Below, one piece after another: positions 9,037 through 13,115 of a stretch of 64,000 nt of DNA (the stretch's first letter is position 1; every line of letters begins with the position of its first letter). Source of the DNA: Candidatus Sumerlaeota bacterium (GTDB lineage: Bacteria; Sumerlaeota; Sumerlaeia; Sumerlaeales; Sumerlaeaceae); the NCBI GenBank assembly GCA_012513815.1, contig JAAZBM010000013.1:1-64000 (forward strand). Direction: 5' to 3'. The notes under the pieces are model-generated. The model did no database searches. It saw only the letters and a program-made list of their open reading frames with translations, and had not been told where the DNA came from. Both the position numbers and the translations under genes were made by a program.

Positions 9037-10572
9037 ATGATTTTAGTTCTTGATTTTGGCAGCCAAACCTCACAGCTCATCGCCCGCAAAGTGCGCGGCC
9101 TTGGCGTGTATTCACAGATTATCCCCTTTAGCACACCTATCGACGAGATTCGCAAACTGAACCCGACAGGCATTATCTTCTCGGGCGGGCCGGCATCCGT
9201 GTCGGACGATGGGTCGCCACGGATTGACCCGGCGGTGCTCGAACTGGGTGTTCCGATTTTGGGCATTTGCTACGGAATGCAACTGATGGTGCATATGCTG
9301 GGCGGCGAGGTGCGCGGGCAGAACAGCAGCGAGTATGGCCCGGCAATCCTGCATCCGAGGAAGTCGGATGAGCCGCTACTCGACGGCATCGCGGACAATT
9401 CGAAGGTCTGGATGAGCCACAACGACGCCGCGGTGCGACTGCCCGACGAGTGGCTGACGCTGGCCGGTACGGACAGCTGCGAACAGGCTATGGTGCGCCA
9501 TACCTCGCGGCCGCTGATGGGCGTGCAGTTTCACCCCGAAGTGCATCATAGCGTTTGCGGGCCGCAACTGCTCAAGAATTTTGTCTTCCATGTGTGCAAG
9601 GCCGCAGCCGACTGGAAACTGGAAGATTTCATCGAGAAAACCTGCGATGACATTCGTGCGTTGCTGGCCGGACATCCCGGCTCGCGCATCGTCTGCGCAA
9701 CCAGCGGCGGTGTGGATAGCACGGTGCTGGCGACGCTGCTGCATAAGGCGGCGGGCGACCGGTTCTTGCCCGTATTCGTGGATAACGGCGTTTTGCGTAT
9801 GGATGAAGCCGAAAGTGTCCGGAAAAATTTTCGCGAAAAACTGGGAATCGAACTGACTTTTGCCGATGCTTCGGATCATTTTCTTGATTTGTTGCAGGGC
9901 GTGACTGAACCGGAAAATAAACGCCGGATTATCGGTCGCGAATTCGTGAATGTATTCCTGAAAGAATTGTCCGAAAAAGATTTCCTCGCGCAAGGGACGC
10001 TGTATCCCGATGTGATTGAGTCGGTCAATGTGAAGGGGCCATCGTCCAAGATTAAGACGCACCATAATCGTGTGCCGGAAATTCTGGCGCTGATGGAGCA
10101 AGGCCGTGTCGTCGAGCCGCTCAAGGAGCTGTTCAAGGACGAGGTGCGGGAGTTGGGCGCCAAGCTTGGGATTCCGCACGAGATGCTCTGGCGGCAACCC
10201 TTCCCCGGGCCGGGATTGGCGGTTCGCATCCTCGGCGAGGTGACCCGCAAACGGCTGGATATTTTGCGGCAAGCGGACAAGATTATCGTTGAAGAAATCA
10301 AGGCGGCCGGGCTTTATGAAAAATGCTGGCAATCGTTCGGCGTTCTGCTACCCGTCAAGGCCGTCGGCGTGATGGGCGATGCCCGCACTTACGCCGATGT
10401 GATTGCGGTGCGCGCGGTCGAAAGCGTCGATGCCATGACCGCCGATTTCGCGCATCTTCCTTGGGAAGTCCTTGGAAAAATCAGCTCGCGGATTATCAAC
10501 GAAGTACGCGGCGTCAATCGCGTTGTTTATGATGTGAGCAGCAAACCGCCCGCGACGATTGAGTGGGAATAG
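9037..10572 (+). CDS. guaA: GMP synthase (glutamine-hydrolysing)
   Basis: Converts XMP to GMP with ATP and glutamine. The N-terminal class I amidotransferase domain carries the triad C78 (GICYGMQLM), H166 and E168 (QFHPEVHH). The ATP-pyrophosphatase domain has SGGVDST at 223-229, and the C-terminal dimerisation domain ends in IEWE. The ATG at 9037 is preferred to a TTG at 9022, which has no Shine-Dalgarno. Its last 144 bp are duplicated at 12368-12511, so this 3' end marks the left boundary of a small island and may have been supplied by it. The reading frame is intact. Confidence 0.97.
   Translation: MILVLDFGSQTSQLIARKVRGLGVYSQIIPFSTPIDEIRKLNPTGIIFSGGPASVSDDGSPRIDPAVLELGVPILGICYGMQLMVHMLGGEVRGQNSSEYGPAILHPRKSDEPLLDGIADNSKVWMSHNDAAVRLPDEWLTLAGTDSCEQAMVRHTSRPLMGVQFHPEVHHSVCGPQLLKNFVFHVCKAAADWKLEDFIEKTCDDIRALLAGHPGSRIVCATSGGVDSTVLATLLHKAAGDRFLPVFVDNGVLRMDEAESVRKNFREKLGIELTFADASDHFLDLLQGVTEPENKRRIIGREFVNVFLKELSEKDFLAQGTLYPDVIESVNVKGPSSKIKTHHNRVPEILALMEQGRVVEPLKELFKDEVRELGAKLGIPHEMLWRQPFPGPGLAVRILGEVTRKRLDILRQADKIIVEEIKAAGLYEKCWQSFGVLLPVKAVGVMGDARTYADVIAVRAVESVDAMTADFAHLPWEVLGKISSRIINEVRGVNRVVYDVSSKPPATIEWE
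10429..10572 (+). repeat. Direct repeat A: 3' end of guaA (left island boundary)
   Basis: The last 144 bp of guaA including the stop codon. It matches 12368-12511 with 9 mismatches and no gaps. The first 44 bp are identical, and a second block of 38 bp is also identical. All nine differences fall in third codon positions and are synonymous. Confidence 0.95.
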
Positions 10573-10643
10573 GCTAGGAATTTGAAAAAGCCTGTCCACA
10601 CTGGTATTTCGACGATAGATCCGTTACATCAAAATTCGAAATA

Positions 10644-10686
10644 GAGAGCTAACTGATTTTGACTAAGTCAGTTAGCTCTCTTTATT
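10644..10686 (+). terminator. Terminator downstream of guaA
   Basis: A perfect 13-bp stem, GAGAGCTAACTGA (10644-10656) / TCAGTTAGCTCTC (10668-10680), has an 11-nt loop and is followed by TTTATT. It separates guaA from the convergent AIPR gene and lies inside the island. Confidence 0.85.
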
Positions 10687-10707
10687 ATGAAGCTTTGAAA
10701 GATCTGT

Positions 10708-11904
10708 CTACGACATGGTTGAATAAGCAACCGTCATATACAAGGTCTTCCATATGTTTGGGTCTTTTCCGACAGACTGTGGATTGTTCCCGAGAGCGCG
10801 ACTCATTGAGACTGTTGAATCTACGAGATTCGGACCTGCCTTTTCCAAAACGTCAAACGGATCAGTTTTCCAACAGTAACAATCGTCTTTCTCCTCAAGC
10901 AGAGCGCGAAAAGCACCAAGGATCGGGTAGATAAAGCCAGAAGGAGATCTATATTTCATTTCATTCTCCATAAATTTAGACTTGAATGTCTCCCCGTTCT
11001 TTGGCATCGAGACCCCCTTTATTGCTCCATATCTTTCACTTGGGTTTTTTACGGTATAAAAATCATTCATTTTTACCTCGATCTTGTCATGCAGCATGAA
11101 AATATCTGCCATAATTTCACGCATCTTCACATAGGGGTTTTTCGCATCTTTACCGTGTTCCTTGTGATCGGCTATGTAAAGATCAATACATTTCTTTTTT
11201 GAGCTATAGGAGTTAATGGGCAAGGAGTCTATGTCAGTGTATCTATCAAGATTGAACATATTAAGAATAGCAAGGATGTCTGATACATCAATGTCGCCGG
11301 AGTCGTTCTCCTTAAAGAATACCCTTTTTTTCTTCATGTACGGTTCGTTCGCAAGAGTGTTCTTAATCAAATCAAACCGGTTTTCGAGTTCGGCTATAGA
11401 CTTGTCCTGAACTTGGACAGATGTATTTCGAGCCGCAGCAAGTTCTTGAAAAATATCCTCAACACCTGTGAGGATTTCCAATTTAACATATTGCTCTCTT
11501 GGTTCAAGCTGTTGTCTGTTTTCTAAAATGGTTCTATAAGTATGACCACCATCGACATTGCCATGATACTCAAAATTTTCGAACGTAATAGTAAGTTCAT
11601 TAGCGTAATTATTGTATTTTACGTCTTTAGCAGAAAGAAGTAACCCACGGTTAAGTAGATAAAAGTCTGACTCGCTGGTCTTTGCAAGAGAATCTTTGAT
11701 CTTCTTCACAACATTGGTTGTCATCTTTTGCTCACGTGGATTCGTTTCCATTGGAATATTGTCTGGAATACTCTTCACGTCGCAGATTGCATAGTACATC
11801 TCAGCAGGATGCATTTCGCCTGTTTCTGAGTTGCGATATGGATTTGGTATTTTTCGGAAAGATTCCACTTTGAATGTCAAAGTTTTGCTTTCTTCGTTAT
11901 TCAT
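10708..11904 (-). CDS. AIPR-family abortive-infection/phage-resistance protein
   Basis: A 398-residue soluble protein without signal or membrane segments. Three blocks in family order match the AIPR (abortive infection phage resistance) domain. They are a helix ending in FYLLNRGLLLSAKDV (81-95; family F..NNG...A), NVDGGHTYRTI (116-126; family VNGGQT), and AAARNTSVQVQDKSI (156-170; family NxQ..V...dL). The C-terminal half (about 190-398) is unassigned. A strong AAGGAG Shine-Dalgarno sits eight bases before the ATG. It is preceded by the XRE regulator on the same strand, with a perfect 18-bp palindrome between them. Phage defence is inferred from family and island context; the mechanism cannot be read from sequence. 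Confidence 0.7.
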   Translation of the reverse strand: MNNEESKTLTFKVESFRKIPNPYRNSETGEMHPAEMYYAICDVKSIPDNIPMETNPREQKMTTNVVKKIKDSLAKTSESDFYLLNRGLLLSAKDVKYNNYANELTITFENFEYHGNVDGGHTYRTILENRQQLEPREQYVKLEILTGVEDIFQELAAARNTSVQVQDKSIAELENRFDLIKNTLANEPYMKKKRVFFKENDSGDIDVSDILAILNMFNLDRYTDIDSLPINSYSSKKKCIDLYIADHKEHGKDAKNPYVKMREIMADIFMLHDKIEVKMNDFYTVKNPSERYGAIKGVSMPKNGETFKSKFMENEMKYRSPSGFIYPILGAFRALLEEKDDCYCWKTDPFDVLEKAGPNLVDSTVSMSRALGNNPQSVGKDPNIWKTLYMTVAYSTMS

Positions 11905-11996
11905 GATATTTCTCCTTGTCTTTCAAGACATTATATTTGGATACGCGATATCCATCGCCATCCAGAATTACATATTGCCGTGTCTTGATAATATTC

Positions 11997-12014
11997 AACG
12001 TCATATATGACGTT
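11997..12014. promoter_or_regulatory. Perfect 18-bp palindrome, candidate operator
   Basis: AACGTCATATATGACGTT is fully self-complementary. It lies immediately after the stop codon of the XRE gene and about 90 bp before the AIPR start. An XRE dimer bound here would control AIPR expression. A weaker imperfect palindrome, GATAT-CTT-ATATC, lies at 12316-12328 upstream of the XRE gene. Confidence 0.55.
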
Positions 12015-12230
12015 TTAAACAATATCCTTAAATAATTCGGCCATAGACAGTCCTGTAGCTTCTGCAATCTTCTGACATTGTTCTAATGTTATGCTGTGTT
12101 CACCACGCTCGATACGACCATAGTAAGCACGACTAATCCCGCAAAACTTAGCAAATGCTTCTTGCGTCATATTGCGAGCTTCACGTATTTTTCTAAGGAT
12201 ATCACCAAACTGTTTATCTATCTGTGCCAC
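12015..12230 (-). CDS. XRE-family regulator, restriction-controller-like
   Basis: A 71-residue single-domain helix-turn-helix protein. It contains FGDILRKIREARNMTQEAFA, then GISRAYYGRIERGEHSITLEQCQKIAEATGLSMAELF. The size and the IERGEHSIT...LSMAELF layout resemble the C (controller) proteins that time expression of restriction-modification genes. The frame stays open to a GTG at 12275, but that codon has no Shine-Dalgarno. The GTG at 12230 has GAGG seven bases upstream and gives the usual controller length. It is probably co-transcribed with, and regulator of, the AIPR gene downstream. Confidence 0.85.
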   Translation of the reverse strand: MAQIDKQFGDILRKIREARNMTQEAFAKFCGISRAYYGRIERGEHSITLEQCQKIAEATGLSMAELFKDIV

Positions 12231-12367
12231 ATATTGTCCTCGCTGTAGTTTAAAACATAAATAAACTGTTTTCACTTAACGATTCAAACAGCATATTGCG
12301 CAATCCTTAAAAGACGATATCTTATATCATTTGCCAGCGATGTCGCTTTTCAATATAGTAACAGTCT

Positions 12368-12511
12368 GATGCCATGACCGCCGATTTCGCGCATCTTCCT
12401 TGGGAAGTCCTCGGGAAAATCAGCTCGCGAATTATCAACGAAGTCCGCGGTGTCAATCGCGTTGTTTATGATGTGAGCAGCAAACCGCCTGCTACAATCG
12501 AGTGGGAATAG
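12368..12511 (+). pseudogene. Direct repeat B: orphan copy of the guaA 3' end (right island boundary)
   Basis: 144 bp encoding the same last 47 residues and stop as guaA, at 135/144 identity, but with no start codon or ribosome site. Every difference is silent, so this tail evolved inside a functional guaA. It is most simply the original host tail displaced when the island brought its own. The dispersed host repeat starts eight bases after it, which supports that view. Confidence 0.93.
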
Positions 12512-12519
12512 TTGACAGT

Positions 12520-12633
12520 GGGCAATAAGCCCAATAGGGCAACTAAGAGAATGAGTAGGGCAACTAGTGTCTACTGGGTGACTATGTAGAGTGGCGTGGT
12601 GGATTAGGGCTGTTTTAGTTTGAGTTTGGGGAG
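12520..12633. repeat. Dispersed intergenic repeat, copy 4
   Basis: GGGCAATAAGCCCAATAGGG, GGGCAACTA, AGAGTGGCGTGGTGGATTAGGG and GAGTTTGGGG appear in the same order as in copy 3. The copy abuts the right boundary of the guaA island and overlaps the 3' end of the Lnu-like gene by 19 bp. Confidence 0.65.
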
Positions 12634-13115
12634 AGGGATTTCAGATTCTGTAGGTCTTGTTTGTCTGTCTCGCGGAGGTCGTAGCCCGTGTGGAATGCCT
12701 CTTGTCCTTTGATTGAAATGGCGGGGATGGTACGTCCCGCGTAGGTGACGGTGGTGAAGTAGTCGGCGGGGAATTGGTAGCGACCTCCGGTGGGGTCTGC
12801 TTGTGATGCCGTTCCGTCGGGCATTACTTGGAACGGGTGTATGTCGATGTAGCTCAGCCGTGGATGGTATAGCTCGATGCGGACGGGACGCCAATCGGTT
12901 GTGATTTTGTAGCCGTGCGCGGTTAGTAGGTCAAGTAGTTGTTGTGTGTACGTCGCGTCGAAGTCGATGTCTATGTCGCGGTGTGGTCGCGTCTGGCGGC
13001 CGCATAGCGCATCGACGCCCCAACCGCCGTCGAGCCAGTAGGGTATGCCGGCGGCTTCTATTAGGTCTAGTACGGTGAAAAGGTCTTCTTGTGTCGTAAT
13101 CTCTTTTTGTTGCAC
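12615..13115 (-). CDS. Lincosamide nucleotidyltransferase-like protein
   Basis: A 166-residue protein close in length and layout to Lnu(A)/LinA enzymes that nucleotidylate lincosamides. The nucleotidyltransferase signature is YWLDGGWGVDALCG (26-39) with the metal-binding acidic cluster HRDIDIDFDA. SYIDIHPF, and GQEAFHTGYDLRETDKQDLQN near the C-terminus, are also Lnu-like. It starts with GTG, preceded by AAGGA. Whether it confers resistance or modifies another small molecule is unknown. Its last bases overlap the dispersed repeat, and it sits just outside the guaA island in an accessory strip. Confidence 0.8.
   Translation of the reverse strand: MQQKEITTQEDLFTVLDLIEAAGIPYWLDGGWGVDALCGRQTRPHRDIDIDFDATYTQQLLDLLTAHGYKITTDWRPVRIELYHPRLSYIDIHPFQVMPDGTASQADPTGGRYQFPADYFTTVTYAGRTIPAISIKGQEAFHTGYDLRETDKQDLQNLKSLSPNSN

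What the first reader, a model, noticed from the sequence alone, without database searches (positions are those of the whole stretch)
10708..12275. Two-gene AIPR plus controller-like XRE module as a compact candidate defence system
The only cargo of the guaA island is an AIPR-like protein and a 71-residue XRE regulator resembling restriction controller proteins. No nuclease, methylase or toxin is beside them. A controller protein normally delays a toxic effector until an antidote is present, so the AIPR protein may itself be the effector, or an autoregulated abortive-infection device. I do not know a described system of exactly this two-gene form.
Basis: partly seen in the sequence, partly recalled or inferred. 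Interest (0 to 1): 0.75.

Follow-up and report, generated by a model that had tools for sequence, protein, structure and literature searches.

The report
XRE–AIPR cassette with RNA leader
A horizontally acquired two-gene cassette (a small DNA-binding regulator and an 'abortive infection' AIPR protein) turns out to be one of many such pairs scattered through bacteria, and its AIPR messenger RNA begins with a conserved folded hairpin that is absent from the RNA family library searched, which points to an unusually tightly controlled, probably toxic, defence protein.

Summary
Confirmed: 10708-11904(-) is an AIPR protein (PF10592, E 7e-34) and 12015-12275(-) an XRE regulator whose best PADLOC hit is an R-M control protein. 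They are the only cargo of a 1.8-kb low-GC insert between guaA and a second copy of the guaA 3' end (9 differences, all synonymous). A census shows that the pair is a recurrent stand-alone module: an XRE gene adjoins AIPR in 67 of 90 loci (background 4 of 387 genes), and no other neighbour recurs in more than 7. The usual arrangement is divergent; the window and its two nearest relatives are same-strand variants. Two cis elements were not in the finding. (1) A palindrome, AACGTCATATATGACGTT, centred about 42 nt before the predicted AIPR start site. (2) A 3'-bulged RNA hairpin at the AIPR mRNA 5' end, with strong covariation (7 of 9 pairs), found essentially only in front of AIPR and with no Rfam match in the window. 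AIPRs without XRE carry a different conserved leader, mostly followed by a terminator-like hairpin. Best reading: a compact defence effector under XRE and mRNA-leader control. Toxicity, phage defence and what binds the hairpin are untested.

The parts
10708..11904 (-). AIPR protein gene, 398 aa
   Evidence: PF10592 E 7.1e-34; invariant D118-G119-G120-H121, N55, R57, N85, N160, R333 across 51 homologues; AF2 pLDDT 93.4
12015..12275 (-). XRE (Cro/C1-type HTH) regulator gene; probable start is the GTG at 12230 (71 aa)
   Evidence: HTH_3 E 6.5e-19; PADLOC R-M control protein E 2.9e-17; XRE adjoins AIPR in 67 of 90 loci
11997..12014 (.). Perfect palindrome AACGTCATATATGACGTT, inferred XRE operator
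   Evidence: Unique in the window at up to 3 mismatches, 0.02 expected; conserved or palindrome-preserving in relatives
11969..11998 (-). Predicted AIPR promoter: TTGAAT (11993-11998), 18-nt spacer, TATGTA (11969-11974)
   Evidence: Read by eye from sequence and comparison with L022 TCGACA-17-TACAAT; the consensus scan does not list it; TATAAT-likeness peaks 30 nt from the palindrome centre in 35 loci
11939..11963 (-). 3'-bulged hairpin GGAUG-GCGAU-GGAU-AUCGC-g-UAUCC at the predicted 5' end of the AIPR mRNA
   Evidence: Covariation; R1 hit 35.7 bits, E 2.5e-6; fold
11917..11930 (-). Second small hairpin UGUCU-UGAA-AGACA, directly before the ribosome-binding site AAGGAG (11912-11917)
   Evidence: Fold; comparable inverted repeats at this place in many relatives, not tested statistically
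10643..10681 (.). Long hairpin beyond the AIPR stop codon, possible terminator; the scan scores it on the + strand, A/T-rich on both sides
   Evidence: 17 pairs
10432..10572 (+). 3' end of guaA, left boundary of the insert
12371..12511 (+). Second copy of the guaA 3' end, right boundary of the insert
   Evidence: 9 differences in 141 bp, all at third codon positions

Best explanation
A horizontally mobile, self-contained XRE-AIPR cassette. SHOWN by sequence comparison: the pair is a recurrent module; an operator-like palindrome sits before the AIPR promoter; AIPR mRNA leaders carry an AIPR-specific, covarying, 3'-bulged hairpin. INFERRED: the XRE dimer binds the palindrome and switches the AIPR promoter; its centre near -42 resembles the lambda cI OR2/PRM position (own knowledge), so activation is possible as well as repression. 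The 5' hairpin adds post-transcriptional control, most simply by AIPR binding its own leader and shutting off translation. AIPR is the effector of a compact anti-phage or anti-plasmid (abortive-type) defence, held low until infection or stress upsets this control. AIPR may be related to DndB/DUF262/ParB-like (DGQHR-motif) proteins, so nucleotide or nucleic-acid binding is its likeliest biochemistry.
For: Recurrence of the pair: 67 of 90 loci against 4 of 387 background genes; only recurrent neighbour. Palindrome beats shuffles in 31 of 67 XRE+ upstream regions and 1 of 21 XRE-less; promoter spacing peak. Hairpin covariation in two clades; specificity of R1 and R3 for the AIPR leader. XRE-less AIPRs have another AIPR-specific leader. 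Purifying selection on AIPR (L022 vs L023 dN 0.014, dS 0.36). Carriage on small plasmids and a guaA insert. AIPR linked to R-M and defence operons in the literature (PMC2292703; PMC3506569; PMC9523054).
Against: No functional data: toxicity, phage exclusion, XRE-DNA and AIPR-RNA binding are all untested. Most loci checked are not in evident defence islands. AIPR is nearly absent from viral contigs. No solved structural homologue; no HEPN-type R-X4-6-H motif.
Confidence: 0.5

Rival explanations
1. Selfish toxin-antitoxin (addiction) module: AIPR is the toxin, XRE the antitoxin or repressor, and the pair persists by post-segregational killing rather than by phage defence.
For: Two genes with a dedicated HTH partner; on small plasmids (PML21, 5.6 kb, 5 annotated genes) and as sole cargo of the insert; XRE also resembles HipB/Y4mF-type antitoxins.
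Against: XRE proteins are far more divergent than the AIPRs they accompany (16-35% vs 32-51% identity to the window protein), unlike a tightly co-evolving antitoxin; many AIPRs have no XRE; AIPR is large for a type II toxin.
Confidence: 0.2
2. RNA-antitoxin (type III-like) module: the leader hairpin RNA itself binds and inhibits AIPR protein; XRE only sets transcription.
For: The hairpin goes with AIPR across clades, and XRE-less forms have the order structured RNA, terminator-like hairpin, protein gene.
Against: One hairpin, no tandem repeats; no evident terminator between hairpin and AIPR in the window; no evidence of RNA processing.
Confidence: 0.12
3. AIPR is not an effector but a DndB-like DNA-binding regulator or modulator; the cassette rewires host or element gene expression.
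For: Weak fold resemblance to DndB-like, ParB-like and GmrSD-N proteins; PMC3506569 puts the DndB N-terminus in the AbiU1/AIPR family and calls dndB a negative regulator.
Against: Stand-alone spread with no regulated neighbour; fold E-values are weak.
Confidence: 0.1
4. The hairpin is a second DNA operator (inverted repeat) for XRE rather than an RNA structure.
For: It is an inverted repeat close to the promoter.
Against: Stem sequences diverge with compensatory changes and G-U pairs, the unpaired bulge is one-sided, it follows the predicted start site, and a bulged hairpin also heads XRE-less AIPRs.
Confidence: 0.06
5. Remnant of a larger R-M or Z1/mza operon that lost its other genes.
For: AIPR is common in R-M operons (PMC2292703); some relatives keep Z1, methylase, Mrr-like or TIR-like genes (L014, L020).
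Against: Recurrent stand-alone pairs with conserved operator and leader and purifying selection in relatives.
Confidence: 0.04

Closest known systems
AIPR family PF10592 (AbiU1/AIPR)
   Same: HMM match well over the cut-off
   Different: Compact 398-aa form; no HEPN-type motif although PMC3506569 describes an N-terminal HEPN domain in AIPR proteins
AbiU (abiU1 + abiU2) of Lactococcus lactis
   Same: Two-gene system (PMC3985639); PADLOC AbiU profile gives the only PADLOC match of the AIPR protein (E 0.002)
   Different: AbiU2 is a HEPN-family protein (PMC3710099), not an XRE; the AbiU match is weak and partial
mza-like and Z1/methylase systems with AIPR
   Same: Contain an AIPR protein (PMC9523054); L014 has XRE, AIPR and Z1 side by side
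   Different: No Z1, MutL/MORC, nuclease or methylase in the window
R-M controller (C) proteins
   Same: Small XRE, PADLOC control-protein profile; operator-like palindrome at an activating/repressing distance from a promoter
   Different: No R-M genes; palindrome is before AIPR, not before XRE
Type III toxin-antitoxin systems
   Same: Structured RNA upstream of a suspected effector gene; terminator-like hairpin between them in XRE-less relatives
   Different: No tandem repeats; single bulged hairpin in the 5' UTR; no evident terminator in the window
guaA-integrating islands such as GIsul2
   Same: Insert at the guaA 3' end; GAGTGGGA motif (PMC9376610) present at both ends
   Different: No integrase; a 141-bp guaA tail duplication instead of a short att repeat

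Membership tests
AIPR (PF10592) | Profile match above the curated cut-off | tested here: met
   118.3 bits, cut-off 25
AIPR (as described in PMC3506569) | N-terminal HEPN toxin domain (R-X4-6-H) | tested here: not met
   Only R17, R57, R86, H121, R159, R333 conserved among R/H columns; no R-X4-6-H; no HEPN Pfam hit
XRE/Cro-C1 HTH | HTH_3 domain | tested here: met
   E 6.5e-19
R-M controller protein | Adjacent restriction and methylase genes | tested here: not met
   None in the insert; methylase families near 7 of 90 loci each
R-M controller protein | Operator before its own gene | tested here: not met
   Only one site in the window, downstream of XRE; in divergent relatives one site could serve both genes
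AbiU | AbiU1-type effector | tested here: inconclusive
   PADLOC AbiU E 0.0021, residues 52-170 only
AbiU | AbiU2 (HEPN) partner | tested here: not met
   Partner is an XRE
mza / Z1 systems | Z1 and MutL/MORC-type partners | tested here: not met
   Absent beside the pair in the window
Type III toxin-antitoxin | Tandem-repeat RNA antitoxin and terminator before the toxin gene | tested here: not met
   Single hairpin; no minus-strand terminator between XRE and AIPR
Type II toxin-antitoxin | AIPR toxic, XRE neutralises it | not testable with these tools
   Needs bench assays
DndB/ParB/DUF262 (DGQHR) superfamily | Shared fold and DGQHR-like motif | tested here: inconclusive
   Invariant DGGH; weak viral-library matches to DndB-like, ParB-like, GmrSD-N proteins; no PDB match
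Known RNA families (Rfam 15) | Match to any covariance model | tested here: not met
   Window 10500-12600: only a chance-level hit; XRE-less leaders: none
Abortive-infection defence | Phage exclusion with death or dormancy of infected cells | not testable with these tools
   Needs bench assays

The most novel reading that the evidence does not exclude
AIPR cassettes are a previously unrecognised class of RNA-controlled defence: the bulged leader hairpin (and, in XRE-less lineages, a conserved attenuator-like leader) is itself the sensor or antitoxin, binding AIPR protein or a phage or host factor, so that a small AIPR-specific RNA decides whether the effector fires.
Probability: 0.2. Interest if true: 0.85.

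Novelty: new variant of a known kind. Interest (0 to 1): 0.62.

Why it matters
AIPR is a common but mechanistically dark defence-associated family, usually seen inside larger R-M, Z1 or mza-like operons. A minimal two-gene form with a defined operator-like site and a defined RNA element makes its function testable with about 2 kb of DNA. The AIPR-specific leader RNAs suggest an RNA layer in the control of abortive-infection genes and give a search handle for more such modules.

Tried and rejected
(a) Hairpin as a known RNA: no Rfam match in window 10500-12600 even at a relaxed threshold; none in the XRE-less leaders. (b) The 35-aa ORF overlapping the hairpin and the AIPR start: a similar peptide can be read in L022/L023, but across relatives the stem bases co-vary as an RNA would, so it is not proposed as a gene. 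(c) Short DNA patterns of XRE-less leader, operator and hairpin against viral contigs: 10, 0 and 15 hits; the patterns are short enough that most hits are probably chance, so not used. (d) A second operator before XRE: none at up to 3 mismatches. (e) HEPN catalytic motif: absent. (f) Solved structural homologue: none. (h) XRE-less leader as a general riboswitch: model R2 gave one weak match in 246 genomes, so it looks AIPR-specific. (i) dN/dS of the window against L022/L025 could not be computed (synonymous sites saturated). (j) Insert DNA on plasmids: no nucleotide match. (l) A MAFFT alignment of whole leaders was spoilt by wrong trimming and dropped.

Full report
OBSERVATION. The AIPR and XRE genes exist where stated. 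AIPR (10708-11904, minus) matches PF10592 with 118 bits against a cut-off of 25. The XRE (12015-12275, minus; probably 71 aa from the GTG at 12230) matches HTH_3, and its best PADLOC profile is an R-M control protein. The stretch is about 38% GC in a 50-60% GC neighbourhood. It lies between guaA and a second copy of the last 141 bp of guaA; the 9 differences between the copies are all at third codon positions. Both tails were therefore under coding selection until recently, as expected if the insert brought another lineage's guaA tail or displaced the native one. No integrase is in the insert. The guaA 3' end is a known attachment site (GAGTGGGA, PMC9376610), and that motif is present at both ends. 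How a 1.8-kb insert without an integrase moved is not explained.

CENSUS. A pattern scan of GTDB species genomes gave 80 kept loci (71% down to about 32% identity), and plasmid and phage records gave more. Counting each locus once, an XRE adjoins AIPR in 67 of 90: 64 divergent (six of these are listed there as overlapping because of over-long ORF starts) and 3 same-strand (window, L022, L023). Of 387 other genes of at least 300 aa in the same loci, 4 have an XRE within 250 bp. The XRE family is the only recurrent neighbour (66 loci by clustering; next come two families, methylases as I read their sequences, near 7 loci each). Caveats: loci were picked by similarity to the window, some are near-duplicates, and some XRE-negatives are cut by contig ends (L024, L041). 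The AIPR tree needs 5 changes for the XRE labels (shuffled mean 13.6), puts the window among gut Bacillota sequences (nearest L022, Oscillospiraceae) and groups the same-strand cases it contains, so the cassette probably reached this host by horizontal transfer and the same-strand form is derived. Spread is patchy: 8 of 345 and 3 of 344 genomes in two orders. AIPR of this type is rare on viral contigs (6 loci). AIPR evolves under purifying selection in relatives (L022 vs L023, dN 0.014, dS 0.36).

OPERATOR. Between XRE and AIPR lies AACGTCATATATGACGTT (11997-12014), unique in the window with up to 3 mismatches, 0.02 expected. Relatives have the same site or palindrome-preserving variants (ACGCTATATATAGCGT), and other clades have other palindromes (ATGCACCATGGTGCAT, GGAACCATGGTTCC, ACCGCATATATGCGG). 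Best palindromes beat shuffles (p up to 0.05) in 31 of 67 XRE+ upstream regions and in 1 of 21 XRE-less ones. In 35 loci TATAAT-likeness peaks 30 nt from the palindrome centre (mean 3.46 of 6), with a second peak at 35; 30 nt puts the centre near -42, next to the -35 element. From general knowledge of lambda cI at OR2/PRM this position allows activation; it also allows repression. XRE binding is inferred, not shown. In divergent loci one site could serve both promoters. In the window XRE lies on the other strand, and no copy of the site lies before XRE.

RNA LEADER. The AIPR 5' regions of relatives share a hairpin with a 3'-side bulge, differing in sequence but not in shape. On 15 G/GU-type sequences 97.8% of cells pair (78.5% shuffled; slid versions at most 54%), 7 of 9 pairs have double changes, and the covariation score is 0.719 vs 0.293, 0 of 500. 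On 11 A/UC-type sequences from another clade it is 96.6%, 7 of 8 pairs, 0.616 vs 0.299. Caution: these sequences were chosen because they can form this architecture, which inflates the paired percentage and the covariation; the more independent checks are the searches. Covariance model R1 over 1.16 Mb gave 22 hits with E below 0.1, all on the sense strand just before AIPR, including loci not used in training such as L022, L023, L036, L047 and L077. In 8 whole genomes the best hit is this site and only two weaker extra hits appear. R3 behaves likewise, with L110-L112 not used in training, although L110 and L112 repeat hairpins of training loci. Some XRE+ loci (L015, L016, L049, L053, L061, L062) show no such hairpin by the simple test. 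The window leader folds with the bulged G at -16.4 kcal/mol, z -2.3. Rfam has no match in the window. The position fits the predicted mRNA 5' end, so a protein-binding translational operator or an mRNA-stabilising element is plausible. My preferred reading, AIPR binding its own leader, is inferred.

XRE-LESS RELATIVES. Thirteen loci (L066, L068, L071, L075, L082, L090, L092, L095, L097, L103, L104, L113, L114) carry instead a leader with a bulged hairpin, then a nearly invariant CCAGUAUCU...AGAUGUGG stem, often a terminator-like hairpin, and often a second AGAUGUGG-like copy at the ribosome-binding site. Model R2 finds them all before AIPR (L103 not in training), and gives one weak match in 246 genomes. 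L095 has both this leader and a divergent XRE 283 bp away. In these lineages RNA control may stand in for the XRE.

PROTEIN. AF2 gives a confident model (pLDDT 93.4). No PDB fold match. The viral library returns AIPR first, then among others DndB-like, ParB-like and GmrSD-N-like proteins at weak E-values, in line with PMC3506569, which places the DndB N-terminus in the AbiU1/AIPR family. That paper also says AIPR proteins carry an N-terminal HEPN toxin domain; here no conserved R-X4-6-H exists, so this compact form would need another activity.

MECHANISM AND STATUS. Shown by computation: module identity, recurrence, operator-like palindromes, covarying AIPR-specific leaders. Inferred: XRE-operator control, leader binding, toxicity, defence. 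Prior art: AIPR in R-M operons (PMC2292703), in Z1 and mza-like systems (PMC9523054), in P4-satellite hotspot cassettes (PMC9122126) and the two-gene AbiU (PMC3985639). In the library I could search I found no description of an XRE-AIPR pair as a system or of AIPR leader RNAs; most subscription papers and preprints lie outside that library.

Noticed in passing
L066:5837-5894, L104:2345-2399 and 11 other AIPR loci: XRE-less AIPR genes have their own conserved leader RNA (bulged hairpin, CCAGUAUCU...AGAUGUGG stem, often a terminator-like hairpin, often a second AGAUGUGG-like copy at the ribosome-binding site), with no Rfam match where tested; possibly an attenuator or riboswitch-like control.
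   Followed up: partly
12371-12511: Second copy of the guaA 3' end, diverged only at third codon positions, at the far side of a 1.8-kb insert that has no integrase; how the insert moved is unexplained.
   Followed up: partly
12615-13115: Just beyond the insert lies a gene matching the aminoglycoside-2''-adenylyltransferase family (PF10706, E 3.6e-58); such family matches need not mean resistance.
   Followed up: no
L020:95-4150: A human-gut contig filed as phage (MT838632) has an AIPR (split in two ORFs) after what look by eye like a methylase, an Mrr-like and a TIR-like gene: a larger AIPR operon type.
   Followed up: no
L017:1-5598: A 5.6-kb Enterococcus plasmid (PML21) carries the divergent XRE-AIPR pair beside replication genes and little else; tblastn hits of equal identity lie on similar-sized plasmids filed under E. 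durans and Corynebacterium ulcerans.
   Followed up: no
11902-12009 (-): A 35-aa ORF overlaps the hairpin and the AIPR start codon; a similar peptide can be read in L022 and L023. Probably a by-product of the hairpin, but a leader peptide is not excluded.
   Followed up: partly
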